From contig JADNRV010000059.1 of the NCBI GenBank assembly GCA_015499995.1, positions 62,001 through 126,000 on the forward strand: a DNA stretch of 64,000 nucleotides. The letters are read 5' to 3'. A program made the position numbers and the translations under genes. The stretch's first letter is position 1, and each line of letters opens with the position of its first letter. Positions 17,105 through 54,395 of the stretch are shown piece after piece. The notes under the pieces were generated by a model. It made no database searches, had not been told where the DNA came from, and worked only from the letters and a program-made list of their open reading frames with translations. The stretch is from Flammula alnicola. Its lineage: Eukaryota; Basidiomycota; Agaricomycetes; Agaricales; Strophariaceae.

Positions 17105-18390
17105 AGTGAAATAAATGAGACAGTTAAACGCTTGATTGAGCACACTGCTTCTTGGGGTATAATGTCTCCATCTCATTATCGTTTAAATACTTGTAGGATC
17201 ATGGTGAGAGACTAGGATTGACTAAAATAGATTACCGTCTCCATCTCCCACTAAATTTTATGCTTCCAGTCGTTGGGGGTGGGAAAAACCACATCTGTAT
17301 ACATAGTTCTAGCCAAGTTGCGGCTCTGAAGGCAGCCGGTAAGGATGCACGAGTATAAGCGCTAGACATGCATCTGGTTACAGCTAAGCTTGCCTTCTAT
17401 CTTCTCAGGTTGTAGGCCACGATTTAAGATTTGATTTAGCAGCCCGGCGAAATGCATTGTGCACCTGCCTTTTGGGGATAAGGTAGAGAGGACCTCTACC
17501 TTAGCGTGGGCTCAGAAATTTAAGCGCCCAATTTCAAACCACGAAATTCCTGATGATTGGCGATTCAGAGCGACTGACTACAAATTTATTTACTCTTGCT
17601 AGTCGCACTCATTAACATGTCAGTTAAGAGAGATGTCCCAGCTGCCCTCGTTATAGCCTTCTTACAGACGAAGTGACCTATGCCATATGCTACTATGTAT
17701 GGAACATTGAGGCTGTCATCAGCCCCTTCTCGCTTGTTAAGTGAAATCCTCCATAATACATCAATACGTCATAAGTACAGATCAAGCAACTCCATCTCGT
17801 CCTCACACAACTACTTGTTCCGGGCCGCTCAGCTTTCAAGTACTATTGCTATAGGCATCGCTAAATTTGCATAGTTCATAATGAACACGAAACCGTGGAG
17901 CACAGTGTGAGCAAAATAAATGTTGGAGAGGGCTTTAAGTCACTCCTTAATTTTCAGACTTTTTTTTTCCGTTGACAAGTTCTGCCTTCTAGATACTCAC
18001 AGCTGACTACTGGCGTGAAAGCGATTCGCTCTTTTGGCTCACACAAGAAGATTCATGCTTACTTTCTAGCCTGATTGTCAAATTTTAGGCCCCGGGTAAC
18101 CAAGGTATAACATGTGAAGTGTACTAAACTCATTTTCACTGTCAAACTTGATTTGGGCGTTTCTATTTTAGGAGTCATAGATCAGGAGGCCGTAGTTTAT
18201 TATATGTTGAAGTAGAACCCTGAAGAGTTCTCGAAGATAATTCGGGGTGCTACGACGCAATGGACATGAGTGGATTTAATCAACCGGGATTTAACTATTG
18301 CGAAGCTTCTATCCAATTGTCGGCGCTCAGAGGTGCAGAAGCTGATCAAAAATTCGCACAGGCATTAGAAAACAATATCATTAAAGATCA
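17105..18390. other. intergenic, no gene recognised
   Basis: Low-GC spacer between the secreted-protein gene and the 3' end of the first TPR/DUF4470-like gene. It holds the minus-strand promoter of the former and the terminator of the latter. No repeat or RNA gene was identified. Confidence 0.5.
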
Positions 18391-21300
18391 TTAATAGGTG
18401 CTTTGCGTACCAGGATGAGACATATCCGTTCGATATACGACCATCTTCCATTGTTCTCTCTGCATCTTCTTGTACCATTGCTGGTTCATCTTCCACGAAA
18501 TCTCTCCTGTCCGCAAATTGACCGACTCTTGACTGAGCATGATCTGTACCTGCATGGTACGGAGATCTGGATCCCCCTCGAGTAAGCGAGAGATCCGAGA
18601 TGCTAGCTGCTCCGCATCGAAGGTTGGATTGGGCGCGTAAAATAAGAGCCCTATTGATCTAATGAATGGTGAAGACAAAGGCCCTCTGAGAGGATCTCGA
18701 GAGAAATCTCGGGGCTTGACACGAGCCTTGTAGGTTTGAATATCTTGGAGAGTGGGATAGTCTTGAGGTAACGACACGGCAAATGGAAGGGCGGACTGTA
18801 CAGATGCGAGAATGACTTCAATGTTTGCCTGCCATACACGGAGATTGACTTTACGCGCGACCTTGCGCTTCCGCGGCTCGTTCGGAGGTACAGGGAGAAG
18901 ACCCAAATAGGGTGTCGCATCAGTAACTAGGTTGTCGGACACGATGTATTGCACGAAGTCGCCTAACCAATGTGCCGGGAATCCTACCCGATGCAAATGG
19001 ATCAGAACTTGGAAAAAAGCAGTAAGGTTGTTTGGGAGTTCAATTCTTGGCGAAGGAAGAGAAGGCGCATTACACAGAATGCACAGCAAGAGATCTGCCA
19101 GCCACGCGTGAAGTTCTCTCTTCGACGCCAATTCATCTAATGGTCGAGGCAGCGGTAAGGGCGTAACGACAATGTCGCCAAAAGGGGAAGAATTTCCGTC
19201 CATTAGGTTGCCGCCCAAGAATCGGGGCAGGTCGCGTGGATGCAAGAGCGTGTAACTGCGCCATCAGCACCATGAAATATAGGGTACGAAACTCGGCGGA
19301 GCGACTTACTTATAGCATATTTCAGCAATGGACTTGAAAGCCGGGCTGTTAAGAAGACAGTTGCATGATACTAGTGCCTTAAGGTTATGGGAAAGGTGAG
19401 GAACCAAATCCACTACAATATTAAGAACTCCGTTTGTGTAATCACTAGTACAAGACTTTGAGTTGACGTGAGGATTACATTGTGAATCAGAACTTACGGA
19501 ACGTTGCTCAACCACATTCGCGTAAAATCAGTGGGGGACCCGTTGGGACGCGGTCCAAGATCTCCTGCAAAGAGCCTAGGCAGTGCGGTTGTCACGTCCG
19601 CAGCGACAAGCTCCAATGTAAGCCTATCCTGCAATACGCCGATCGACTCGCCGACGAGATCGAAAAACTTCCTGGAAACCGAGAAGGAAGTCATTCCTGA
19701 AACGGATCTCGGAAGTTTCTGATAACGACCCATAAACTCGAGGAAGGTAATTAGAGTGTCGTATGGGTTGGTGCAGAGTTTGAGATATCCGTTGTCTTCT
19801 ACGAGATCGGGATGCTCCGTTGAGTTTTTGTCCTGAGTTGTACGCGTAACTATGTGCTCTGGGTATAGCGCCAATAGTAAAGGACTCACGAAAAGTGTTG
19901 GATTGACTTTCCAGGTGTCTTCTATCTCCTTGGCCGCTGCTTTGTAGGCGCTGCGAGGAGCCGCGTTGAATGGCGTCGCCGTTGCGAGCTTGGCCAGAGC
20001 AGGATGCCGCGAAACCAAGGCCTTGGGGGGTAGGAGAATCTTAGTTTTATCGTAGATAATTCCCTCTGCTTCAGGGTCATCATACGCATCCAAGGTATCC
20101 TCTGCAAGGCCTTTCGCTAGCTTTTTGCGATCGGAATTGGCCGCAAGATGCAGCGGCGGGCCTAGCCCTTGCGAATTGAGGGCCGAGTTAGTCTGCAGGA
20201 ATAGTTTTGTCGATTTCGGAAGTGGTGAAGACCAGTATTTGAGAACTTCCACAGTAGCCGGGATACTTTGCTCATTGATGTGGAGAGAGATTAGCATTTT
20301 TCGTTTTCTTGGTTCCAAAAGTTCGTCAGCTAAAGTTTCGGCCGCGGCGACGAATCTGCGGATTGATATTGAGAGGTAGGTATTCATCATATCAACAAGA
20401 AACTCACATTATGTAGCAGTATTCCGGCATTACCAAGGACATATACACATAAAAAAGCGTAGTATGGAGTTCCAGTTCAAGTTGGCTCTGCAGACCTTCA
20501 TTCCGCCGAGTTTCGATAATTCTTAAAACTAAGGCAAGGACAATAAGGGTACGAGCCAACGTCGCAGGATGAATGTCCACCAGGGTCATGTGAAGATCGA
20601 CTGAATTGCGTTGTTCGGGAAGAGGAAGATTACGTGTGCTGTCTGCAACATCGATCAACGTCCCAAAGACATGACGAGCTGCGAGAGATTTGGTGGTCAG
20701 GATGACGTCTAAAACTCCTCGATGTGCCAGTGAACACACCATCGCCTGAGCCTCCGAAAAGAAAAGACAGCTTTTTGCGTTCTTCGTCCGCAAAGAATTC
20801 CAACTTGATGGAATCAGAGTCGTCCCTCACTCCGTTGATACCATCCAGAAGGGAACGGACGCGATCGTGGCCGAACTGGAAAGATGAACGTGAATCTCAT
20901 GCGTTATTCGCCCAGAAGCAAGGAGCTGTAAACAACATACATTATATAGTTCGTTGACCGGATCTCTTTTAAACGTTTAGGAGTGAGCGTACGGAATGAT
21001 GCAGTGACTCACGATGGAGACTTGAAGATGGACATTGCTCTGAGACGTGCTTTGGCGTCAGATATCGAAGCATTGTATTCTCCAGCAGTGTGGCGAGCGC
21101 ACTCCTCACGTATGGACAGCCAGTGCTTCCAGATTGATACCATTTCCGCAACTTTGACTGCGCCAAATTCGCCATTTTCATCCCGTCCCAAGAACACAAA
21201 GTTTTCGATATCGGCTTCAATTGCCTTCGCTTCGGGAGTCTGCATGTTCTGAGAACCGGCGGAGATAGGACTTGGAGACAAGACGTGCAGTGGCATTGAC

Positions 21301-21726
21301 TTGTTGGAGAAGCCATTGATTCGGGCCTTGGCAAATCGTGTAGCAAGTTTGAGTGCAAGAGGATCTGTTGTCGGCGGTGTGGTGGGCTCTCCGTTGACCG
21401 CATGTTGAGCACGCAAGCCTTGCCAAGAAACAACTATAGCTTGAACACATTGAAGATACTTCCCAAGCTCGTATTGAACGGCGCTAAGGTTGGAGGCATG
21501 TTTGAGTGTTTTGGGATCAAGCCTAGTTGCCTGTAAAGTGGGAAGAGTCAAGACGCGATCAACGTCGGCCTTTCCCAGCAACAGTCCCTACCTCGTTGAA
21601 AAAATTCTCAGCTCTGAAAAAGTGGAATGTTGTGAGATGTGAAGCAGTGCTTTTCCGATTTATGTACTTAGTTAATTGTCCCGCCTTGTAACTGGCATTA
21701 CCCTCTTGATGAGCTGCCTCTGCCAT
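18391..21726 (-). CDS. TPR + DUF4470-like fungal protein, paralogue 1
   Basis: Ten minus-strand exons give about 943 residues: 21668-21726, 21592-21613, 21013-21530, 20941-20965, 20740-20875, 20408-20678, 19890-20355, 19498-19832, 19310-19444 and 18391-19255. The 57-bp intron 19833-19889 has no stop and could be mistaken for coding sequence; paralogue 2 has an intron at the same place. The N-terminus (MAEAAHQEGNASYKAGQLTK, then ATRLDPKTLKHASNLSAVQ) is TPR-like. [19 protein letters not shown] plus VDIHPATLARTLIVL matches the DUF4470 pattern often joined to TPR or MYND modules in mushrooms. No MYND cysteines were seen. The C-terminal half ([31 protein letters not shown]) is shared with paralogue 2. 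Molecular function is unknown. All exon phases are consistent. Confidence 0.85.
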
Positions 21727-23407
21727 TGTGGATGTGTATTGGTATAAGTATTCTCGAGGTCAAAGCGATGTGTAGGGTGTTAAAGATTCGAAAGAGAGAA
21801 GGAGAAAGCAGCATGTACTACGTATGGTCCTTCTGTGAGGTCTCGCGACGCATGGACCATCAGCTAAATAGGAGCCATAAAGTCACATTACTACGGTGGC
21901 TTCGACCTAATTATATGCATCTCAGGAGAGCGCACATCCATTCGCGTATACTGAGGTAAATATGCGAATACCTAATTCAATGCTAACGGCGCCTTGGCGC
22001 CAGACCCCGACTCCGTTTACACTTTTCTTCTTCCAGAAATCTCAGCCTTATTCATCTTTCACAACATCTACAGCTATCTAGTATTCCTCCATGCGCAATT
22101 TTATTATTAATAATCTTTCTTGTTCGTAGGTTGTTTTGTCTTTGTTGCGCTTCATTTTTGGTTGGGAGAGACGGGAGATACATTTCGAATTTACTTCAAG
22201 CAGGATTGTGTTTGGACATCAACCATTGAGGAATTTCATTGGCTAACCACGCAAAATTTTCAACGCTTTGACCAGCATCAGAATTTTGGCGAAAAAAGAC
22301 TCTTCACGACAGAACAGCGCTTAAAACAGGAACTTTCCACGTCAGAGCACAGAAATTGAATAAATTGTGAGTGATGAGAAATTTGAAAGGTCGGAGCTAC
22401 CCATTTCACATATGTCCTGGCCCCATTTGCTGATAAGTGTCATTTTTTAGAGGGTAAGATGACAGCTGAGATCATCCTGAAACCAGGAAGTGCACGATTG
22501 GGATGTCAAGAAATATTCAACATATAGTTCAGGATGGTATAATGGATCATAAAATTTTGGGTATTGATTTATATTGTGGAGAAAGTCGTGAGATGGACAA
22601 TGATAATCGTCGAGAACACGAGGTACTCTCGACAGCGACTTGTTGAGAAACATAGGATTGCGGCTATGAATACGGTGTCAAATGGGCTATCTTGCATAGG
22701 TTCAAATAACATCTCACGGAATTTTATCACAGCAAATAAGGTGGTTGAGGTTCACAGAAGTGATGTCTTCAAAGTCAGACAGTGAAACAATGATATATGA
22801 ATTCAGGGCCTTCAGTCAGTGCACGATGGAAGTCTGGAAGAGGACCTGTTTAGCATGTGGCGCATTTGAATAAACTGATCGCTTACGCACGAGTTGTCTA
22901 TTCAAGGGGCAGAAAGTGTCGCCTGGCAGTAACGGACGCGGCATCTGCCAAAAGCCTCACCTATGTAGCCTAGATATCCTATTGAATACCTGGTTGGGAC
23001 AATGTTCCAGCTTTAAAATCGGGCTATGAAATGTCTTTTAAATTTTATTTGAGAAAGAAGGAAAGCAATGGTGGGGAAAGGAAACGATTGTCGATGGCGT
23101 TCATTGTCAATTGGAATTCGTAGGAACAAACAGATCACGAGCTCGATTATATAACTTTGATTTTCTCACGGCTTTACAAGCGTTTTGGCTGGGAGGCCGG
23201 ACGTTTGTGAACGACAGAACCCTCCTGTCCTTCGGACAGAGTCGGGGATGGGCTCCGAGTTCCTTCGACTCACTACCCAGGGCTCAACAGGTACAGTAAT
23301 TCAAAAAAAAGCGAGTACGTGAAGGGACAGGGACGCTACCTAAACATCACGCTGAAACCGCTTGCCACTTGTCAGCTCTCAGAGGTTCAGTCACTAGGCA
23401 TAAACAG
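21727..23407. other. spacer between tandem paralogues
   Basis: Contains the promoter of paralogue 1 (immediately right of 21726) and the 3' flank of paralogue 2. Only short frames without motifs are present. A CTCAGAGGT segment at about 23377 resembles CTCAGAGGT at about 18327, near the 3' end of paralogue 1, in keeping with a tandem duplication that included the 3' flank. Confidence 0.5.
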
Positions 23408-26400
23408 TCAGCCATTGGACCACAGTTGATATGAATTGAGCATCAATGTACCGGCCGAAGACAGGTCAGTTCGGTAAGCGACCATATTCCACCGCTCTGT
23501 CACCATCTTCTCGTTCCAGGATCGACTCATTTTCCATGAAATCTCGCCTGTTCGCAGATTAACGGCTTCTTGACTAAGCATGATCTGGACTTGTACATTG
23601 CCGAAAATCGACTTTCCCTCGAGAATGTCGGGTACATGGGCCGCCAACTTGTGGCCATTGATATCGAGACGAGGTTCGTAAAAAATCAAACCAACCGAGG
23701 CGATGAAAGGAGACGATAAAGGGTACAATAAAGGATTTTGACGGATATCGATGGGCCTAACAGTCGCCTTGTATGTTCGAACGTCATCGAACGTGGGATA
23801 GTCTTGAGGCAGGATGATAGAGAACGGAAGCGCAACCTTCACAGATGAGAGGATAACCTGGAGCTCCGCTTGCCACGCGTATAGGTGAACCTTTCGCGGG
23901 GTCACCCGCTTCTTGGCTTCTTGAAGAGGTGTTGGGAGTAGATCCAGGTAAGGCGCGACGTCGGCGACCAAAGTATCCGAAAGCATGCACTGGACAAAAT
24001 CACTTATCCAGTGTGAAAGGAATCCCACGCGGTTCAGATAGACTAGGACATGGAAGTAGGCGCTAAGATTGCTGGGCATCCTGATAGTGTAAGGCGGAAG
24101 CCGCGGCCTGCCGCTGCAGAGTGTACAAAGCAAGAGATGAGCCAACCAGGTTTCAAGCTCTTTTCTCGATGCTAATTGATCTAATGGCCGAGGGAGGGGC
24201 AAGGGAAGAAGGGCAACGTCGCCCTTAGCTGCACCCCGGCCATTCATAACTTGGCAGCCGAGGAATCGAGGCAGATTGTCAGCGTATAGCAGAGTGTGGC
24301 TAATAAACAACGTCAACATCGAGTCGCGTGTCGCAAAAGACAACGACACCTACTTGTAACAAAATTCATTGATAGAGCCATACGATCCCGTATTGAGGAG
24401 GACGTTGGACACGGCCACACCATTGGGTTGAAGGCGAGGGACTAAATGTACGGCCGTGTTCAAGATACCATTTGTGTAATCGCTAATGCAGTCAGATAAC
24501 CGTCAGTCTAAGTGTTTACTATCCGGTGAGATGAAAAATTCTTACGGAACGTTGCTGAGCCACATCCGAGTGAAATTCGCCGGAGATCCTTCAGGTCGTC
24601 GACCGAAGTCACCAGCGAGCAGCTTGGGGATTCCAGTAATGACGTCCGTTGCGACCAACTCCATCTTGATGTTACCCTTCAAGATATCGATAGAATCCGC
24701 AACTACTTCGAAGAATCGATTCATGATGGAAGCGCCGCTCTTTGCAAAGGGAGGAGAATAAAAGCTAATGATGAAATCCGAAAACGAAAGCAGGGTATCA
24801 TATGGGTTAGAATGAATTAGTGGATAGCCTCCCTCTCCACCGAATTCAGGATTTTCAGTTGTGTATTTGTCCTATCAATAGAACGTGAATGATTTGATCG
24901 GGAGGCTAGGAAGGGATCATACGAAGATGACAGGGCTGGGTTTCCAGTTTTTCTCTATCTCCAACATGGCAGCGGCGCGCACAGGTGCAGGTGCAGAACG
25001 GTATGTCCTCAATAGCGCAGCCAAGGCCGGATGTCGCGTCAATAGAGATCTTGGGGGAAGCAAGACTGTAACGAGATCATAGACCATGCCTTCGACGATT
25101 GGACTGCTGTATGGTTTATCGAGAGAATCTGCATTATTGGAGTTGCAGAGGCCATCGTTATAGTTTCGAAGGGCATTGCTATCCTTTGCCTTCGGCAGCA
25201 TCTGCCGGATTCTTTGAATGAAGACCTTTGTTGATTTGGGAAGGGGATTGGACCAGTATCGCAAAACTTCGACAACCGCAGACACGCTGTACCCATTGAC
25301 GTGCACCCATTCTGAGAAACAATGAGTACCCAGCGGGAGATTAGAAGCTAATTCCTGCGAAACATCCATGACTCTTCAAGGTGTAAATAACGTCAGATCA
25401 GCGAGAAACGGCAGTGAAAATAATCTCACATTTTACAACAATAATCGGGCATCAACGCCGCCATGAGGACGTAGAAAAGAGTAGCGTGGAGCTCTGCACG
25501 TCTCGTCTCATCTCCAGATTTTCGGGTCTGCAAGACCTTTTCAATGATCGCTAACATAACCAGCGTTCGGGCTATGGTCGCCGGGTGGATGTCCACCAAA
25601 CATAGATGGATCCTCAGAAGGGGTTGTAACTCGGACCGAGGGAAGCCTTTATGTGTAACCATGGCCATAAAATGAATCAATGTCCCAAAGACATGACGAG
25701 CTGTCCAATTTCATTACATCAACAACAAACAAAAAACCCAAGACATGGAAGTATACGACTAACCATCGCCCGAGCCTCCAAAAAGGAACGAGAGCCTGTC
25801 AAAATTCTCCAATTCATGCCGAAGGTTGAAGATCTTGGAATCAGGTCCCGTCTCATTGTCTACCCCATCCAAGATTGAACGGACGCGGTCATGGCCAAAC
25901 TGTAAAAGCAGAAGTTGAATAAAATACGGCAAAAGTATCAGGGTATGGGTCCGACTTTAAATAACTCCATGGTCGGGTCGCTATTAAATATTCAGAGCTC
26001 AGAATAAATCAGTCTGGGAAAAAATAGAATAGATACTCACGAGGCTGATTTGAAGATGTGGAGGCCCCTCAAACGAGCCTCCGAGCTAGCAAGAGCCATT
26101 CCACACTGCTCAGGGGTATGTAGAGAGCAATCATCACGAATGCTTCGCAAGTGCTGCCACGCCATCCTCATTTCATCTATTTTTGCGTCGACAACGTTTT
26201 CAGGACGTTCCAGCATGACGAACTTATCGATATCGGTTTCGAGAACCTTGGCAAGCTGTTTCTGGTTTGCCTCTTTCGCAGATTCGACGTTGATCGATGA
26301 TTCATGGCGAGCGATAGTCTTGTTCGCAAAGCCATTCATTTTCGCTTTAGCAAAGCGCGTCGCAAGTTTGATGCCGAGGATGTCAGTTGGAGGGGGCGTA

Positions 26401-29400
26401 GCAGGTTTCCCGTCGACTGATCGTTGAGATCGCAAGATTTGCCATGCAAGAACAACCGATTTGACTGCCGAAATATATTTTCCCTGTTCATAATACGCTG
26501 CACTGAGATTCGAGGCATATTTTGGGTCCTTGGGGTCAAGTCTTGTGGCCTGAAAGCGAAGTTAGTCGAAATCTCGTAAGGGAGATATCAGTCCAAGGTA
26601 ACTAGCCTGTGGACCCGTGCTTCGCACGGGAAAGAGTTGTCCAAGAGTCTATGAGCAAGACTTTGAGAACTGAAAGGTGCGAATTTTTTTGCTCTATCAC
26701 GTGTGAAGAATGAGTTTAGGGTTAGAGTGTTGTCTTTGTACACGCGGTGACAGTCTCAGCTAATGTGACCATTCTTGTCCGTGACTGCCACCACGCGACG
26801 GTGCTCGACGAGCACGCTGAGGCTCCAGCCTGCAGTCTCGCTTTCTTTTACCCCACCCTCCACTCCCTTGAACTTGCATGCATTTGATGCGACATTTTAT
26901 CTAACAAGACAAGTCGCCTCAACTGGGACCGAGAACAATGCCGAATGATGGGCATTGGGTAAGCACAAGTTCTTCCCACCCGCCCATCGCAGCTCGTCTC
27001 GGTCCCGAACGGGATTTCTGTTAGACCAAAAGCCTCACGGCTTTCCCCACATACCGCGCTCTATACATCTTCCGCATATGCTACAGCTACCTCATATTCA
27101 CATTGCTACTCATGTAAGATTGAACATACACCAAGCATGAGACGGCGAGCATAGTACAAAGACTGGTTGACGAACAATTCACACGACATTTTGAGATGTA
27201 TTGAAGATAAATGTGATTGTATCTGTCTCGTATAGAGTCAAGGGGGTTCGCGAACCAAAAAAAAATACCTAGGGTCGAATTATTTTTTTCGCCCATTTTC
27301 GCTGGACTAACTAACTATGTAATCAGGCACACATCCCGATATGGTAATATGACATCACCAGTGCATGCGCTTTCCCACATGAAGATCCCTCGCACGTCTC
27401 GCAAACCCATTTCTGAGGGATTTTCTCGAGGTTGATATGTTCTAGATAATACTACAGATGTATTAATACAATGTTGTAATGAAATCTGATTTTTTGACTT
27501 TGAAATAAACCCACCGTGTTTTGTAAAAGGTCTGAACACTTGCAGTTTACGGAAATCGTGAACAGATGGACTGGCTTAGTCATCCGGCAACTGCCACAAA
27601 CTAATGATTGTTTGTTCTATTCTCATTCTACATGCACTAACAGCCTATTTTAATGAGATTATCAGTTACGTAGAGAGTGATAAAAGTGATAAGACACCTT
27701 TGCACCACCCAAAATCGCAAATTTCAGGGCACTTGTAGAGGGCTCTAAAATTTTTTTTGGGCAGCCTATGGCTGGACTAACTAACCGACCCCCGGTCCGG
27801 CATTCTGGTTCCAGAACCCCCTTGTATAGAGTAGGCATTTATGTACATAAAACATGAATCAGAATAATATGTAAAAATGTCAGAAGCGACACTCGCTAAT
27901 TTGTTCATGATGAGCAGGTCTAAGGCAAATCAGAGACCGGAATCTGTTGATGTTTCCAGAGTGATGCTGGGTTCTCCGCACCTAGTACGTTTATTTGATG
28001 TAAGTAATTTTCATGCACTGACTGCCATTGAGCTAATTTGTATCACCGCGCTACACAAAACAACCAACTTTGCATAAAAATACTTGGAATGCATTTAGAA
28101 TACAGCCGTTTCGGAAATTCTTGTCCACGGTGATTTCCGACATTTTTTAAATAAAATAAATCAAACAAATCGAGAAAATAAGAAAAATTCAGAAAATTCA
28201 GAATCGTAGCTTCCGCTGTCTCTACTCCTCGTAAACGAGCATCTACACTCTTTTAAATATCTATACATCATGTCTGATGACTACGACAATCATCCCTTGG
28301 ACTTTCCTGTGTCTGACGGTGAAGAGAACATCTTCCTACATCGAAAGCCGTGCCCGCTACCCAACGAGATGATTCATGAGCTTGCACAATGCCAGTGCAT
28401 CTGCAAAATTCCCCGCGTCCTCGATTTGTATCCTCAAATAGTCCTCATGCCGGTCATACTTCTTCGCAAGGTAGGATGCATGCTCAAAGTAACCCGCTTG
28501 TCTGCACACACGAATCGCGGTGACAAGGTCGAACGGCAGCTCCTCCGCGTCTCCTCCATCTGCCTTGGCATTCCGCCGCGATTCTGTCTTGATGAAGCTG
28601 TCGAGCCGCACAACGTCTTTGAGCTTGGTGTAGGTGTTGAGCAGGAGGGTGGTGTGGTCGGCGTTGGCTAGTCCCAGACTCCCAGAGAGTGCACTTCTTG
28701 AAGATACGTTACGAGGTTCTTTATTCGTTGTGCGTCGAGATACTATACGTAATGATTCGAATTCAAGTTCGAATTTTGGCAATGGAATTTAGGACTCTTT
28801 TTTGAGGGTTTTGACAAGGGTTCACGATAGCCCTCTGGAAGACTTGATGACGTGGCACTGCACAGTGGGCAACCTTGCCTCTGCGACATGCTCCGGGGCA
28901 CTTGAAAGCAAAAATAAAATATCTAGTTGCTATTCATGATCATGAGGTCATCCTTCATTTTCAGTCATTCTGGCTTCCATTTGTGAGGTCTTTTGGCCCC
29001 AAATCAAAAGTTTGAAGACTTCGAGGCCTGGATAGCTCTATTACAACCTAACCTCGTCAGAAACAACCAGGCTTTGAGCCGTATGCATGGTATTGATATG
29101 GTTACATATAAGGAACATTAAACAGTCGAAAGGACTGCAGAATCACTCGATTAAAGCTCGTTCTTGCATTTCTTGCATTTCTTGCATTTTCTGGATTTTC
29201 TGGATTTATTTTATTTTAAAACACCGGAATTCACCGCCGGACAAGAATTTCCGAAACGGCTGTACCTTTCTGATGAATTCTACCAAAAATCTTGAATAGC
29301 AGAGGGGTATGCAATATCTGCTTTTTTGAAACCCGTAGAGCGCACATCAGTGGAGTTTGAATTTTCATATACTGACTGCTGTTGAGCTAATTTGTATCAC

Positions 29401-32400
29401 TGCGCTACACAAAACAACCAACTTTGCATAAAAATACTTGGAATGCATTTAGAATACCTTTCTGATGAATTCTATCAAAAATCTTGAATAGCAGAGGGGT
29501 ATGCAATATCCGCTTTTTTTGAAACCCGTAGAGCGCACATCAGCGGAGTTTGAATTTTCATATACTGACTGCTGTTGAGCTCATTTGTATCACTGCGCTA
29601 CACAAAACAACCAACTTTGCATAAAAATACTTGGAATGCATTTAGAATACCTTTCTGATGAATTCTACCAAAAATCTTGAATAGCAGAGGGGTATGCAAT
29701 ATTTACTTTTTTTTTGAAGCGCACATCACTGCATAGATGGCTTCAGTAAACAAAGATCAACAAAAACTCGTAAATGAATCTTTCTGCTAATTCGTGTCAC
29801 TGCATGCCTCACACCAACCAACTTTATATAAAATTATGCTTACTGTCTTGAAGACATCATGCTAATTGTGCTTTCTAAAAATCTAGAGTAGCAGAGGGGT
29901 AATATTTATTTTTCTGAAGGAATGTAGCAACAGTAAAGCCTGTAAGGATCTGTGCTTCGCACACAGGAATCATATGCTAGTATACTTTAATTTAAAAGAA
30001 CCTCTTCATATACTACATTAGATGTAATAGGTTCAGTAGCATTATCCGGAAGAAGAATCTTAATATTGTGGCTTGAAGTAGCCCGTGAAAGTGCGACATA
30101 AAGTTGTCCATGCGCAAACACAGGAATTCGGAGATCAAGACCAACGTATCGTACAGACTGACCCTGGGACCTGTTAATAGATAGCGAGAATGCAAGTCGG
30201 ACAGGAAACTGACGTCGCTTGAATTTGAAGGTCACGTCTGCAGCAGACGATGTTGGAGTCAGGGAAATTCGTGGGATTAAAGCGATCTCTCCATCGTGCT
30301 CTCCTCCGATAAGACACACCTCAAGAACCCTATTGTGCATTCTTGTGACAATCATTCGAGTACCATTGCAGAGACCTTGTGAAGGGGAGAGGTTACGAAG
30401 AAGGATAATAGGGCATCCGACCTTGAGATTGAGTTCGCCTGGAGGAAGACTTGACGAATTGATTGACCGCAAAAACTCGACAGGAATATGATCGTCATTC
30501 TCCGGATCTGCTCCTGCCTCACGTATCATTTCATCAGCGCTGATATACTGTTGAACATCTCCAAACATTCAATCGAGTATCTGTTGATTGAGTTCACCAA
30601 CATCGGCATTTCGTGGCGCAAGGATCATTCGGTTCAGAAAATATTCAGGTGGGGGGGTGGGTCCGAATGAACATCAGGGTATATGGAATCAATGAGCGAT
30701 TCAACGTTGTCGACTCTCATGTGCTCAGGCAGGTGGATCTGGTTATTGTCAATCATATTTCGCCCATGGCCTACATCGAGAAGCCACTGGGAGAATTGCC
30801 GAACGTAAGCTAATCCTTGATCAAGACGCATGTTCTGGCGGAGGAAAAGGATTTCAACGTGTTGCCAGAGGTGTGATCGCTGAATGGTTGCGTCCAAAAT
30901 ATCTTCACGTGAACCTTTGGGTACCACAGGAAGTGTTTGGAGAAAGTCGCCTCCGAGTATGACAGGAATGCCTGCGAAAGGTCGATCATTATCACAGACA
31001 TCGCGTAGGGTCCGATCGACAGCTTCGACTGCATGCCGGTGTTGAGCACCTATTTCATCCCAAATGATAGCCTTTGTAGCACGGAGAAGGTCAGCGCGAG
31101 GACTATTCTTCTGAACGTTGCACATTGAACCTTCAGTGAGCGTGTCGATTGGGATTTTGAATGTTGAATGAGCTGTTCGGCCACCACGAATAAGGAGTGC
31201 TGAGATTCCAGATGATGAGACGCAGAGAATAACTTTCCCTTCACTACGTAGCTTTGCACAGATTGTGTTGTAGACAAATGTCTTCCCGGTACCGCCATGA
31301 CCATGCAGGAAAAACACCTCGTCCAGCCCCTCCTCGATTGATGCGATGATTCGTGTATAGGCGGCTCTCTGATCGGCATTTAGGCAAGGGAGTCACTCAT
31401 CCAACTCAGCTTGTTGAGCATCTCGGTTGTAGTTGAGCTGTTCTGCAATCAGATGGTTGATATCAAGAGCAGCCCAATCTCGAACTGGTCGGGGCATGGA
31501 TGGAAAGTCCGCCAGTGTGTGTCCAGAATCGCCTAAAATAGTATCGAGCAGGAAGAGGCCATAATCGTAAACGTCTTCCTCAGCTGGATTCTGGATTCCC
31601 ATGGCTTGCAGACGGTGTTCCAAATCATCACAGATAAGATGTCGAAAGTCGTTCCACAATACGTTGGGCTGAGCAGGGGGTCCGAAGAGCAGGAAAGTGG
31701 AAAATAGATGTCGCACTCGGGTGCCAGTCTGCATCTCACATGCTTCTTGCAAGCAAAGACGCCATTCACCATCGTCCTCAAGAAGACCTCGAGCAAGACA
31801 TGCGGCATGAAAGGTGGGCAGGGGGTCTCGATGTGCTGGTACTCTGCGAAGGTCTTCAAACGACTTTGGGCCTTTCACTACGGTAAGCAAAGTACGCAGG
31901 TAAAACTGCTCGCCGGCTGTAGGCTTGATGAAATACATTCGACCCAGCGCAAAACCTTTCTTTCGCAGAGTCCATTTCCTGTCATTTTCATTGTAGACAA
32001 AATACTGAGGGAATTCCTGATATGTGTGTTTTCTAGCTTCTTCGCCAAGTGGACTGGGGTCTGCGTTTGCCTCGAAAAATGCAGTCAAGGAAGTCCGTTG
32101 ATTTGCCCCACGTTGAAGAACAGCGTCAATATCTTCGTCTGGATTAAAAGTGACCATATGGTGGTTCTCAAGGTGGACTTGAAGGCGAACAACATTCGGA
32201 ATTTGCTCGTGAATGTCAAAGTGGAAGATTCGCCATACGGCATCAGGTGGAGAGATATAGCGACCCTCTATCCACCGCTTGACCTCATCGCGTCGATTGA
32301 CCTCCAGTGCAGCAAGGTCTGGTCCCTTCTGAATGTACTTGAATGCGTACTTGAACGTTCCGAGGGATATGGCGCATTCCATGTTGATGTGGCAATGGAA

Positions 32401-35400
32401 GTCGCCGCAAAGAAATGGCGGGTATGCGACAATCCAACGATTATCGACCATCACGCCTCCCACCTCATATGCGCATCCATCATTCGGTCGGAAATAGAGA
32501 GGGTATCCACGGTGGTCCATTGTTGTGAATTCTTGGAAATCCTTCGGGTAATTTTTGCTGCATTTGCCGTCAATCATGCACGGAGCATTGGGATTCAGCG
32601 CTCCACAGGGCCCATGCACCATGCATTTCTTGACCGTTTCAAATAAGAGTGGCTGGGTCTCGGGGTCTGGCCAACGTGCTGAGATGCAGGAATCTATCGC
32701 TTCAGGGGTAAGCAGCTTGTAGGGGTCTTTGAGGAAGACCAGGCAGTGCATGTGAGGGAGCCCACGCTTCTGAAATTCAATTGTGTAGATGTAGGCAACA
32801 GCCCTCCCAAATACACCGTGCTGGTAAATATAATCGATAACTGCCTTCTTCTTCATCTGAAACACCCGTGTCACCAAGTCAGGACGATCATAGGCTGTCT
32901 GGCCCGGTAGAAGCTCGCGCTCAATTTCAGCCCAATGTGGATTGGTCGTCATCGTGAGGAATATATCAACCTTTCGGAAGTAGCGAGCAATGGCCATGGA
33001 ATCCTGGAAGCCTTGACCTAAGTTTCGAGGTCCACCAGTATAAGAGGACGGAAGGATGACACGCTGGCCAAGGTCATTGAGGTCGAGATTGTCGTCGTCG
33101 TTGGCCACGGCATCTTGGAGATTGTTGAATCTGGCAGCCCGAAACATTGGCTGACTTCGTTCTATCCACGACAACCTTTGCTGGTCAGCAGAGGCAAACA
33201 TGTCAACAACATAACGGGTAAAAAGGCGGCCACCATGAAGTAGTGGATTAAATTCCTCGGGGCGGTAATGAATCCGATGCGCAACATATCGAGTCAAGGT
33301 GAGTCGTCTCGACTGTGGTAAGTCGCCAGGTTGTACTTCCAATCCACGATCGCGTTGCCGCTGTCGCCGTCCCTCTCGCTGCTGAAGCCGACCATCTCGC
33401 TGCTCTGCAGTTTCATGCAACTTCATCTCTGGGTACCAACCATTTTCACCTCGGGGAAAAAGAAGAGGATATTGAAGAGGGGTATAGGCAGGATGGAGGT
33501 CACTGATACGATGTAAAGGTCCAGAACGAAGCCGAAGGATGATATCGCGGGGCTCTGTTGAATGGTTTCCAGGGAGAATAACTGCCACCTCATCAGCAGT
33601 TGGGAGGTTGTACCGACGGCGATCAAGTCCAGGAGTCAGTCGCAGTCGCACTTCAACGTCATTTGCTGGATCATATGTTTGCAGGATTTCGAAGGCGTGG
33701 CGGTAGACAGGAACATATTGGTGGTGTTGTGAGAGCATCGTTTGTAGGCCATCCATGATCGTTTGGTCAAGACCTGCATTTTGCTGCATGCGAACATCCA
33801 ACGCTGCCCGCGGCTCGTAGACATACAGCTGGGCATAGCTCGCCGGACGTGTTCCTGTGGCCACCAGTGCTCCAGATCGATGATGAAGTTCGCCAAAAAT
33901 CCTAAAAACCGGAGGTCCTCGTCCCTGATTGACAGAATGATCCTCGTCGACCCCGAGTGAAGTGAAGGCCAATGCCCGGTTATATTTCCAGATTTCATCC
34001 CGAAATGTTTTGGCATCATGATCAGCAGAGGTGAGAAGATGTCGAAGGGGTTCTGGTGGGGCCTCGAGTGCTGGAAGCCAAATCTTCCCTTCCATGCAAC
34101 ATATTCCAAATTTTGGCGAACGTTTAGAACTGTTGGAAAGCTTTTCCGCCAGCCAGTGAAGAGCGCCACAATTTGGACAGGGAATGTCCATTCGACCCAA
34201 GTCATGTCGTTGAGGTGGATCTTGGTAGGGACGGCGACCTGCTAGAAATAGTCCTCGCGATCTTCCTCGCTGCGCAGTTGGTCGTGGAGCAGTGTACTGA
34301 ATAACATTTGCTGGACGGATTACAATAAAACAGATTAGCCAAATAGTAATGAAAGGCCATGCAGCCGATTTACATACCTGGTTGTCTGCCTGGCCGCTCA
34401 ACGTTTCGTAATTGCGCGGCATGGCCCCGTTGACCGTCTAGAAAGCTTGTCAGAGAAGCAACACAAAAGAAAAAATTAAGAGTACTTGCCTTCCTGAACG
34501 GCATCATAAAGATTGAACATCCATTGTACATTTTCATCGTGACCTGGCTCGGCCTGTGGTTGATCGTCCTCTGCATAGCCTCGGTCGTCTGAAAAAGAGA
34601 ATTGTTTGAGATAATCGCAGAAGCAAAGAAGTTAGCGACATACTTGTGTCTGCGGCCTGAGTAGTAGGAGGAGTGGGCAACGGAACTTGATTCCGCTGCT
34701 GATTGGTATGCGGCCTGGGTTCCTGAGCTTGTTCAATGCGAGACCTTTCTTCTTGTTCTCGTTCTCGGCGACGTTGCTGACCAAGGGATCTTGTATTAGG
34801 TATTGCTGTCAGAGTTCGCCACAAATCCTGGGTAGGAGCAGGCGCAGGCTGGGTAGGAGGAGGTGACACAACTTGAAGAGGTGGCATTCGTGCAATCCAC
34901 CATGGTTGTGGAGCAATGTTCACTGCAGGAGAGCTTGCCTGCTGAATCCGTGCAAGTCGTTCATGCTCTCGCCTTTCCCGCTGTGAAGTCAAACGCGAAT
35001 GGCGTTGATGGGCAGCATTGCCTACAGTTGGAGTTTGGTGATCTGGGAGTGTGGGTACATTTGGCTGAGATGACTGGCCGTTGAGTCTTGGAGGTGTTGA
35101 CGAAGGCTTTGAAAAGAATGAGCATCATTCTGAGATAATAAATGTTATCTTACACACCAGGTATCTAGCCAACAGAACCCTCGCATTTGTACCCTGTGGA
35201 TTATTCTCGTCTTGGGGCGCAACTTGCGCACGTTTTCTCCGTGGTGAGCTCAAAAGCTCCGCAGTGCGAGCCTCTCGATTCGAAGCTCGAACAATTGCCC
35301 TTGTTCTCTCGACATGCCCAGGCTGAGGAGTAGGAGTTTTGGGTCTGGGAGCAGCAGAACGACGCCGCGGACTTTCTTCAACATTCAGAGAGCGATCCCG

Positions 35401-36141
35401 AAGAGCTTGCCGTGTACGAAGTTGCTGACGTTCAGGTGTCGTAAGATTTCTGGTCAAGGGATCCATAAGTCAGCAGAGGTATTGGAAGGAGAGAAATGCG
35501 GCAGTGGAATATGAAATGTGAATATCGACTTACCTCGACGCGTCGATATCGTGACCGTTCCTGCCCTGAGTTGCGAAGAATGGGGCTAATTTCCCAGAAT
35601 GATGGAGAGGTGCACCTGGGCGCAACCGTCTTGATTCTCGAATAGCCGCGCCATGTAGCCTCGCATGGCGGTCTGTTCACTTCTGTTCATGATAAATAGC
35701 TCCAAAATTCACTTCCCATGTTGGCGGTGCGCTGTTTGCGAAGTTCAGACACAAACTGTATTACATGGTACTGCACATACATAGGTGATATAACATTCTG
35801 ACATTGAGGTCTGGGAAATGCAGGAAGAGAAGGAAAAAAAGCCCCAAGAGAGAGTCGATGTTGAACGCTAGGAAGTTGAACCGTCCGACGTCGGACCTCA
35901 ATTTGCAGCGCCATTGGCGGTTTGTCTAACCAATCATAAGACCTTTTTGTCCCCCCGTGAGAAACACCGTTGTCGTATTATAATATAGATAGATAGATCA
36001 CCTGGTTATAAGCTTTCTGAGCTCTACAATTCCAATTCCGAGAGTTAAGTCGATGGCCCAAAACAATACGAGTGTTGCTCACTTCATGAAGTCTCCAGCT
36101 TTGTAGAAGGCATTGCCCTCTTGATTAGCTGCCTCTGCCAT
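23408..36141 (-). CDS. TPR + DUF4470-like fungal protein, paralogue 2, split by a Helitron-bearing intron
   Basis: Same ten-exon plan as paralogue 1: 36084-36141 ([20 protein letters not shown]; left edge plus or minus 1), 36002-36023 (the 22-nt exon, AQKAYNQ), 26041-26549 (starts ATRLDP), 25956-25980 (25-nt exon), 25764-25899, 25430-25700, 24923-25373, 24546-24871, 24354-24482 and 23408-24299. The summed length is a multiple of three, about 939 residues, with no internal stop. Internal exon lengths 22, 25, 136 and 271 are identical in both copies. The second intron is 9,452 bp (26550-36001) because it holds a Helitron; in paralogue 1 it is about 60 bp. Domains are as in paralogue 1 ([36 protein letters not shown]). 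Whether the giant intron is spliced is unknown. Confidence 0.85.
26602..26630 (-). other. Helitron 3' terminus (hairpin + CTAG)
   Basis: On the minus strand, a 7-bp GC-rich stem (CCCGTGC/GCACGGG) with a GAA loop, then 8 nt (TCCACAGG), then CTAG at the junction with a host T. This is the signal that ends rolling-circle transfer in Helitrons. Confidence 0.9.
27239..27823. mobile_element. MITE-like insertion with 9-bp target duplication inside the Helitron
   Basis: The 9-mer GTATAGAGT is present at 27230-27238 and at 27824-27832. Between the copies lie inverted ends AAGGGGGTTCGCGAACC (from 27240) and, as complement, AAGGGGGTTCTGGAACC (ending 27823). A 9-bp duplication suits a Mutator-like (MULE) element. 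The 585-bp interior has no transposase. A direct repeat of CTGGACTAACTAAC occurs inside at about 27303 and 27773. Confidence 0.7.
28103..29262. mobile_element. TA-flanked TIR element carrying a VPS11 fragment
   Basis: The ends are inverted repeats of about 60 bp. The outer 24 bp (CAGCCGTTTCGGAAATTC, then TTGTCC) are identical, and the rest is similar down to an A/T-rich AAATAAAATAAATC stretch. TA flanks both sides (28101-28102 and 29263-29264). The neighbouring tandem units show the empty site AGAATACCTTTC, so a TA was duplicated on insertion, as in Tc1/mariner-type elements. The 1,160-bp interior has no transposase but contains coding sequence from VPS11, so it is non-autonomous and has captured a host gene piece. 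Confidence 0.85.
28390..28670 (-). pseudogene. captured fragment of VPS11 (HOPS/CORVET subunit)
   Basis: About 93 codons read uninterrupted on the minus strand: [27 protein letters not shown], then [40 protein letters not shown] and GNFADALAL. This is the clathrin-repeat/alpha-solenoid part of VPS11 (Pep5), a core subunit of the vacuolar tethering complexes. Both ends leave the homology abruptly inside the TIR element. The segment has stayed open, so capture looks recent. No intact VPS11 is in the window. Confidence 0.85.
29937..29967 (-). other. second, internal Helitron-like 3' hairpin
   Basis: Just downstream of the helicase stop, the minus strand shows CTGTGTGCGAAGCACAG, then ATCCTTACAGG, then CTTT. 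Layout and sequence parallel the true terminus (GTGCGAAGCAC core, ACAGG spacer), but the stem is imperfect and CTTT replaces CTAG. It is probably the original 3' end, now weakened. Confidence 0.65.
29987..35466 (-). pseudogene. Helitron RepHel (HUH replication initiator + Pif1-like helicase), interrupted
   Basis: The N-terminal exons (35125-35466, 34534-34992 and a short one near 34440-34575) are Gln/Arg/Pro-rich and end with [21 protein letters not shown] sequence. The main block 31393-34310 contains a [12 protein letters not shown]...FGICC zinc-knuckle-like start, the HUH motif ([11 protein letters not shown], about 32737-32766) and the catalytic tyrosine pair YAFKYIQKG (about 32326-32352). 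The helicase part (30634-31317) has Walker A GHGGTGKT, Walker [19 protein letters not shown] and LRQNMRL, and continues at 29987-30568 with [12 protein letters not shown] and YVALSRA. Three lesions are visible: a TGA at 31393-31395 in frame between Rep and helicase, a frame change at the seven-C run near 30650, and a TGA just before 30568. It was probably active recently. Confidence 0.88.
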
Positions 36142-52995: not shown

Positions 52996-53227
52996 TCTCA
53001 ACTTTCAAGAGTCAACATGGAGGTTTTGCCATTAGAAAAGTTGCTACGAAGGTTTCAACATATTATATAGATATTATAAAGTGCTAGCCACTATTTTCTA
53101 GCACAAATATGTGGCGAGGACACTGAGAGGGACGTCTTCAAGCAATGTTCAGTGGTTCGAATCCTAAACGGGCATTGATCGCTACTGACCTAGTCTCTCC
53201 TAGCCAGACTACGATATATGGAGAACG

Positions 53228-54345
53228 AGTCTGAAATGAATATTCCGGCTCACCAACTCATGAGCCGGACTCCGACTCACCCGTCACACGTCAAACTGCA
53301 TTTTATTGGCCTAAGTACCTCCTAAGGACGTCCTTGAGGTTCTCGGAGAGTATATAATAAGATAGAGATCCCGAAAAACGTACCTTGAGCCTTAGAGAGA
53401 AGTATACAGCATGTAAAGTATCTTGGCTACTATTTCTGTGTCTGTACATCAAATGGAAAGCGACACTTCCTCAAGGCCTCAAGTCTGCTCGTATTCACCA
53501 AAAATAACATTATGTTTATTACATATGCATGTAAGGTTTAACGACATATAGCGTTGTATCTACGTGCTATCATGACAGGTGTACAACGGAGGCGGAGGCA
53601 AAGGCAAAGGCGACAGCTCGCGCCGCAGGCGGGGAAATTACCTATCCTCATCTCCCGCTTGCAACGGCTTCATGGCCTCGCTCTGCCACCTCTGGCTTAC
53701 TCTCAACGACTCCCACCCCCGCCGTTGCCCGCCTCTGGTTCTCTCCCCATCGCTCGTTCTTGTCTCTTGTTCTCATCGTTGTTCTCGGCGTTGCAGGAGC
53801 ACGGTAGCACCATATTCATACCATCTCTTCGTATTCCTCCCCCTGCTTCTTAGCTCGTCGCCGTTGCTTTCGGCTGCGTTCTTGGCCTAGTATTAGGTGT
53901 AGTCGATCCCGGCTCCACATCCCTTTTAGAGGGGAGGGGCTCGCAGGTTGCGAGATGGTAAACCGTAGGCTGGCAGAGATGGTTGATGGGCGGCGAGTCA
54001 TGATGGCGAGGTGGGAGGACAAAGTGGGCAGCTGGTGCTGGAGCGTTGAAGACGTCGAAGGGGATGGTGGCGGGAGGAAACTCCGGTGACAGGAAAGGAA
54101 AGCGGCGGCAGTGTCATGATCATGTGACACATTTTTGCCTTTTATGTTCACATATGGCGGCAAATTTACATTCGTGATAATTGTCACCAGACACTCGAAA
54201 TTAGGGACAAGAAATGCACAAATATGTTCAGAGAAGCTCAGAGATAGCTTATGAGGAGCAAGAATCTGGAAATACCAGATACAGGCTGTGCCGGAGGATG
54301 AGTCGGACTCCGGCTTGTGCCGGTGAGCCGGAATATTCGTTTCAG
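53228..54345. mobile_element. 1.1-kb inverted-repeat unit inside the hAT element
   Basis: TGAAATGAATATTCCGGCTC (from about 53232), followed by CACC and later GCCGGACTCCGACTCA, recurs as inverted complement at about 54296-54340, where the arm reads TGAAACGAATATTCCGGCTC and ends GCCGGAGTCCGACTCA. The arms are about 45 bp with few mismatches. The interior has Arg- or Pro-rich open frames (53554-53890) without recognisable domains. No target duplication was evident. Confidence 0.6.
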
Positions 54346-54395
54346 TCATTTTTTGGATATATGTGATGTGCCCTTCGGATCACGATATATGTAGT

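What the first reader, a model, noticed from the sequence alone, without database searches (positions are those of the whole stretch)
26550..36001. A 9.4-kb Helitron sits precisely inside a 56-bp intron of an otherwise intact gene
Exons 1 and 2 of the second TPR/DUF4470-like paralogue (36084-36141 and 36002-36023) lie 9.4 kb from exon 3 (ends 26549). The nearby paralogue supplies the uninterrupted template: its second intron is about 60 bp. Deleting 26602-35997 between host A and T leaves a 56-bp intron with a normal donor, branch-like CTAAC and acceptor. All coding exons stay open and in phase. Fungal introns this long are exceptional, so either the giant intron is spliced, or the insertion is very recent, or the gene is silenced without coding decay.
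Basis: partly seen in the sequence, partly recalled or inferred. Interest (0 to 1): 0.92.

Follow-up and report, generated by a model that had tools for sequence, protein, structure and literature searches.

The report
Helitron in one allele's small intron
In a mushroom genome, one of two versions of a gene carries a 9.4-kb rolling-circle transposon dropped exactly into a 56-base intron while the other version is uninterrupted; it is a clean natural experiment on what such an insertion does, but a kind of event that is not rare in mushrooms.

Summary
The extra 2.4 kb is three nested insertions (a VPS11-carrying TIR element, a hAT-like MITE, a 476-bp element) plus a 193-bp duplication, and the intron copy's RepHel gene is broken while the C15 frame is open. 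The insertion is young relative to the allele split, but not brand new. Intact exons therefore say little: with no constraint at all, none would be disabled in an estimated 6-58% of cases. The deposited gene model skips exons 1-2 and starts inside the transposon, losing the first TPR helices. Most likely the interrupted allele is poorly expressed or truncated and covered by the empty allele. Splicing of the 9.4-kb intron, or a transposon-born first exon, remain open and need RNA.

The parts
36083..36141 (-). exon 1 of gene 2 (59 nt)
   Evidence: open frame and intron positions shared with gene 1 and the C2 paralogue
36002..36023 (-). exon 2 of gene 2 (22 nt), donor GTGATC
26550..36001 (-). intron 2 of gene 2, 9,452 bp; 56 bp in the empty allele
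26602..35997 (-). Helitron, 9,396 bp: 5' TC..., 3' hairpin then CTAG, between host A (35998) and T (26601), no target duplication
29987..34422 (-). RepHel gene of the Helitron (Helitron_like_N, PIF1, Pif1_2B), broken by two premature stops and one frameshift; an open 1,483-aa frame exists in the C15 copy; start not defined exactly
28103..29262 (-). nested TIR element (1,160 bp, TA target duplication) carrying a VPS11 gene fragment; absent from the C15 Helitron
28360..28677 (-). VPS11/PEP5 fragment inside the TIR element
   Evidence: PF23356 hit; related loci on C250, C168, C7
27239..27824 (-). nested hAT-like MITE (586 bp, 8-bp target duplication), 100% identical to copies on C553 and C368; absent from the C15 Helitron
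26687..27162 (-). nested 476-bp element of unknown class with fixed ends and no evident target duplication; absent from the C15 Helitron
27130..27189 (-). first exon of the deposited gene model BDZ97DRAFT_1920671 (P0001): Helitron sequence plus the start of the 476-bp element, joined to exon 3 by a 580-bp intron
23347..26549 (-). exons 3-11 of gene 2 (DUF4470 and the rest of the protein), all open
18298..21726 (-). gene 1, tandem paralogue (P0004) with ten introns of 47-69 bp (span without stop codon)

Best explanation
A Helitron of a family with many relatives in this genome inserted by its usual A|T, duplication-free route into the 56-bp second intron of one allele of a TPR/DUF4470 gene, in the sense orientation (shown). 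The insertion is heterozygous: the other version keeps the uninterrupted gene (shown for the sequence; that the two contigs are the two nuclear haplotypes is the likeliest reading). The element has three further insertions and a broken RepHel frame that the C15 copy lacks (shown; that they came after arrival in the intron is inferred). The most likely effect (inferred, not shown) is that transcripts starting at exon 1 mostly stop or mis-splice within the 9.4 kb, so this allele makes little full-length protein, and it is tolerated because the empty allele covers it. The exons look intact because little time has passed, not because function is demonstrated.
For: Empty allele exactly A|T, 56 bp, 940 aa open; second empty site A|T on C523; 3' hairpin and CTAG; Rep and PIF1 domains and 34 other RepHel matches in the genome; collinear second contigs C303 and C744. 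Recency: 46 differences in the 3' 5.5 kb between intron and C15 copies, 28 of 46 CpG transitions, against dS 0.0765 between alleles; nested MITE identical to two other copies. No extra decay: of 67 amino-acid differences 23 polarise to the Helitron allele, 27 to the empty allele, 17 unclear. Weakened donor: score 1.95, below all 29 donors used to build the matrix (lowest 2.55), 3.54 in the empty allele, with 151 GT sites at least as good inside the intron. Genes silent in the TE-bearing allele and active in the TE-free allele, a Helitron family among the causes, are reported in Pleurotus ostreatus (PMC4905642, passages).
Against: No RNA was available, so reduced expression is not shown. Donor GT, branch-like CTAAC and acceptor all survive. 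The donor matrix comes from 29 introns only and is crude; the empty allele's donor is itself weak (3.54). CpG transitions do not lean towards the Helitron allele in the flanking gene (10 against 18 in 23248-26601; 3 against 6 upstream), so there is no trace of methylation spreading into the exons. Coding changes do not lean towards the Helitron allele either.
Confidence: 0.68

Rival explanations
1. The transposon supplies a new start: transcription begins in or near the 3' end of the Helitron, a 60-nt first exon (27130-27189) made of Helitron plus nested-element sequence is spliced by a 580-bp intron to exon 3, and the allele makes a 933-aa protein with a replaced N-terminus, as in the deposited model.
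For: The deposited protein P0001 has exactly this structure and can be read letter for letter from the window. The element lies in sense orientation. [quoted passage not shown]
Against: Gene predictors generally disfavour 9-kb introns and would be pushed to such a start (my knowledge); whether RNA supports the model is unknown. The start removes the first TPR helices: P0001 has only PF14737 in the precomputed list whereas the 940-aa form has TPR hits at 2-50. All 14 next-best homologues (P0002-P0015) begin MAE, none like P0001; lower hits vary (P0016 and P0019, for example, have other, short N-termini). Its donor scores 1.87, no better than exon 2's 1.95.
Confidence: 0.15
2. The 9.4-kb intron is spliced normally and the allele is fully functional.
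For: All splice signals remain; exons intact; coding changes are balanced between alleles (23 against 27, 17 unclear). In soybean a 5.7-kb transposon in intron 2 of a gene still gives, among chimeric ones, a correctly processed transcript (PMC1947982, passages).
Against: The 30 introns of the three family members, with gene 2 counted by its empty allele, are 47-69 bp; the donor is weakened and 151 GT sites at least as good lie inside; a RepHel gene in the same orientation sits in the intron and should bring its own transcript end (inference).
Confidence: 0.13
3. C303 is a recent segmental duplication in a haploid genome, not the other haplotype.
For: Long tracts of C303 are 99.5-100% identical to C545 and only some blocks are 2-7% diverged.
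Against: A separate contig, C744, whose match begins beyond the end of C303's, is collinear with window 56009-64003 at 96%, and C15/C523 form another filled/empty pair: contigs that tile the same region fit two haplotypes. Even if true, the empty-site proof of the insertion stands.
Confidence: 0.08

Closest known systems
Helitrons of Pleurotus ostreatus (HELPO1/HELPO2)
   Same: RepHel gene, AT target, subterminal hairpin and CT[A/T]G 3' end, a copy broken by a nested transposon (PMC4289320, passages)
   Different: I saw no insertion into a host intron in the passages; 'intron' occurs there for the RepHel genes' own introns. The nested elements here are not the LTR element described there
TE insertion polymorphism and allele repression in P. 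ostreatus
   Same: Up to 50% of TE insertions differ between two haplotypes; 21 genes silent in the TE-bearing allele and active in the TE-free one, the HELPO1 Helitron family among the causes (PMC4905642, passages)
   Different: Those are insertions within 1 kb of genes; here the element is inside an intron
Maize sh2-7527 Helitron mutation
   Same: A Helitron in a host gene, with chimeric transcripts and loss of function (PMC1657028 and PMC1947982, passages; that the site is an intron is recalled)
   Different: Plant gene; phenotype known there, not here
Nested hAT in Fusarium oxysporum Helitrons
   Same: hAT element inserted in a Helitron (PMC5148889, passages)
   Different: FoHelis are described as non-canonical Helitrons (title); this one is canonical (A|T, CTAG)

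Membership tests
canonical Helitron | Rep domain plus PIF1-type helicase | tested here: met
   PF14214 E 1.4e-59, PF05970 E 1.1e-67, PF21530 E 1.5e-19 in three pieces of the broken gene; open 1,483-aa frame in the C15 copy
canonical Helitron | insertion between A and T without target duplication | tested here: met
   two filled/empty pairs: C545/C303 and C15/C523. Of 10 relatives with the plain 5' start, the base before it is A in 7 and G in 3; no empty sites were sought for those
canonical Helitron | 5' TC and 3' CTRR with a hairpin just before the 3' end | tested here: met
   TCTATC... and ...GGCTAG; 7-bp stem, -8.4 kcal/mol, z -3.0
canonical Helitron | rolling-circle transposition | not testable with these tools
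   mechanism inferred from the family
hAT-like MITE (nested) | 8-bp target duplication and short TIRs | tested here: met
   8-bp duplications at 3 of 3 copies examined, of 51 matches in the genome
hAT-like MITE (nested) | mobilised by a hAT transposase | not tested
   no transposase sought
TIR element with captured gene fragment (Pack-TIR) | TIRs, target duplication and a host gene fragment inside | tested here: met
   TA on both sides at 10 of 10 copies examined including the window's (two of them, on C308 and C290, share flanks); 8 full-length copies match over the whole element including the VPS11 fragment
functional giant fungal intron | removed by splicing in RNA | not testable with these tools
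   no RNA data

The most novel reading that the evidence does not exclude
The allele is alive: either a mushroom spliceosome removes a 9.4-kb, transposon-filled intron that was 56 bp until recently, or the Helitron and its nested element have donated a start and first exon, giving a protein with a new N-terminus in place of its first TPR helices, with the ancestral form still made from the other allele.
Probability: 0.27. Interest if true: 0.65.

Novelty: new member of a known kind. Interest (0 to 1): 0.4.

Why it matters
Filled and empty alleles of the same gene sit in one assembly, so the effect of a 170-fold longer intron on splicing in a fungus could be read from one RNA sample with 118 coding differences between alleles as internal markers. 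It also shows how a transposon can distort a deposited gene model (exons 1-2 lost, a transposon exon gained) and gives two clean empty sites for a basidiomycete Helitron family.

Tried and rejected

'Intact exons prove function': rejected for lack of power. With a branch divergence of 0.17-0.84%, kappa 2 and an assumed indel:substitution ratio of 0.1, the chance of no disabling change in 2.8 kb without constraint is 0.58 to 0.06. The allelic dN/dS of 0.43 mostly reflects time before the insertion.

'A special divergence island caused by the Helitron': the 3.6% block around it (189/5323 against 119/25080 in the rest of the aligned parts) spans both sides of the element, and C744 differs by 3.7% from the window (8,000 of its 13,856 bases fetched), so high divergence looks normal here and the near-identical tracts may be shared descent or assembly. 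No meaning attached.

'Methylation spreading into the gene': CpG transitions are 28 of 46 differences between the Helitron copies (3' part) but 28 of 141 and 9 of 48 between alleles, and do not lean to the Helitron allele. Polarising the Helitron differences between 29.5 and 34.5 kb with three relatives was mostly unclear (29 of 43 ambiguous, 9 on C15, 5 on the intron copy; the sites at the two premature stops were among the ambiguous).

Seven paper searches showed no fungal Helitron-in-intron case with splicing data in the rows listed (searches listed only the top 25, 15 and 15 of longer lists); that is no proof that none is in print. That long introns are exceptional in basidiomycetes was not tested genome-wide; PMC11649378 passages report low intron content in all fungi sampled (44, of which 40 Ascomycota).

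Full report
What is there. The window is C545:62001-126000 of a 74.4-Mb assembly. Gene 2's deposited product, BDZ97DRAFT_1920671, is from Flammula alnicola and lies on a contig of 301,528 bases, the length of C545. On the minus strand gene 2 has 11 exons and an open 940-aa frame; nine introns are 51-63 bp and intron 2 is 9,452 bp. Pfam finds TPR repeats at the N-terminus and DUF4470. Gene 1 (18.3-21.7 kb) and a paralogue on C2 also have ten introns each, all 47-69 bp, the second being 61 and 60 bp.

The insertion. Between A (35998) and T (26601) lie 9,396 bp that begin TCTATC and end in a 7-bp hairpin and CTAG. They hold a Rep domain and a PIF1 helicase in pieces. A search with the flanks found contig C303, which matches the window on both sides and reads straight through...CAGGTGA|TTACC..., a 56-bp intron. 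Its copy of the gene is also open for 940 aa. C303 is collinear with window 8587-49687 apart from the Helitron and a 1.27-kb stretch (21983-23247) that it lacks; C744 is collinear at 96% with window 56009-64003. The likeliest reading is a two-haplotype assembly with a heterozygous insertion.

The second copy. A 7.0-kb copy on C15 matches the intron copy, and C523 holds its empty site, again A|T. Twelve further loci with the 5' end were looked at: ten start TCTATATTATAATA after varied flanks (the base before is A in seven, G in three), one (L032) has one extra TCTA and one (L042) departs from the family at its first bases; the C15 and intron copies have one and two extra TCTA units. So the A|T target rests on the two empty sites, and the G-preceded relatives are unexplained.

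What differs in the element. Compared with C15 the intron copy has three insertions: a 1,160-bp TIR element with TA duplication and a VPS11 fragment, a 586-bp MITE with an 8-bp duplication, and a 476-bp element of unknown class; it also has a 193-bp internal duplication. In the search with the Helitron's 3' end, none of the 33 other places held both the 476-bp element and the Helitron end, so that nesting was seen in this copy only. The RepHel frame has two premature stops and a frameshift, whereas C15 has an open 1,483-aa frame. Whether these events followed arrival in the intron cannot be proved; no other copy with them was found, but only C15 was compared in full.

Age. The two Helitron copies differ at 122 of 6,972 aligned sites, 76 of them in the 5' 1.5 kb, which looks exchanged; the remaining 5.5 kb differ at 46 sites, 28 of them CpG transitions. 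The alleles differ by dS 0.077 and dN 0.033. If rates are alike, the copies separated at roughly a tenth of the age of the allele split, or less without CpG sites; this bounds the insertion unless C15 came from the intron copy. The nested MITE is identical to two other copies. Hence young, but with time for several events.

Is the gene working? The sequence cannot say. Of 67 amino-acid differences, polarised with 11 homologues (P0002-P0012 of the 29 other hits), 23 fall on the Helitron allele, 27 on the empty allele, 17 are unclear. That speaks against strong decay, but decay is hardly expected yet. The insertion changed the donor from GTGATT to GTGATC, lowering a crude score from 3.54 to 1.95, under the lowest of 29 family donors (2.55), with 151 internal GT sites at least as good. 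Published work in Pleurotus shows up to half of TE insertions polymorphic between haplotypes and 21 genes silent in the TE-bearing allele (PMC4905642, passages). I therefore favour a weakened or truncated allele covered by the intact one.

The deposited model. P0001 skips exons 1-2 and starts [20 protein letters not shown] at 27189, in Helitron sequence that runs into the 476-bp element, then a 580-bp intron to exon 3. All 14 next-best homologues start MAE, and the empty allele has the standard exons. Unless RNA supports it, this looks like a prediction forced by the transposon; if RNA does, it is a transposon-born first exon.

Verdict. The finding is real and unusually well supported by an empty allele in the same assembly. 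As a kind it is not unusual for mushrooms; what is attractive is that it makes giant-intron splicing in a fungus directly testable.

Noticed in passing
window 28103-29262; C342, C259, C19, C556, C173, C308, C290: A TIR element with TA duplications carrying a VPS11 (PEP5) fragment has eight full-length copies; the seven others are 98.5-99.3% identical to the window's. Relatives with the same ends (C801, C36) hold other internal sequence. It looks like a gene-fragment-carrying TIR family in a mushroom.
   Followed up: partly
window 26687-27162; C357, C123, C612, C806, C663: An element with fixed ends (TCTTTGTACT...GATAGAGCAAAA), no evident target duplication, in 0.47-kb and about 2.1-2.2-kb forms; class unknown, the long form has open frames on the opposite strand.
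   Followed up: partly
window 34500-35997 against C15: The 5' 1.5 kb of the two Helitron copies is far more diverged (76 differences) than the remaining 5.5 kb (46), as if the 5' part had been exchanged with another family member.
   Followed up: partly
L033, L035, L040 (C779, C334, C3): Three relatives of the Helitron 5' end are preceded by G instead of A; in L040 the preceding bases read CTAG, as if one Helitron followed another head to tail.
   Followed up: no
window 8587-49687 against C303: Mosaic divergence: long tracts at 0.0-0.5% broken by blocks at 2-7%; shared descent, recombination or an assembly effect.
   Followed up: partly
window 21983-23247: A 1.27-kb stretch between gene 1 and gene 2 that C303 lacks; nature not determined.
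   Followed up: no
window 53218-54355: A repeat right of the locus with 96-99% identical copies on seven other contigs (C97, C124, C68, C335, C116, C168, C33).
   Followed up: no
C250, C168, C7: VPS11-like loci 90-91% identical to the fragment carried by the TIR element; C7 has three matches.
   Followed up: partly
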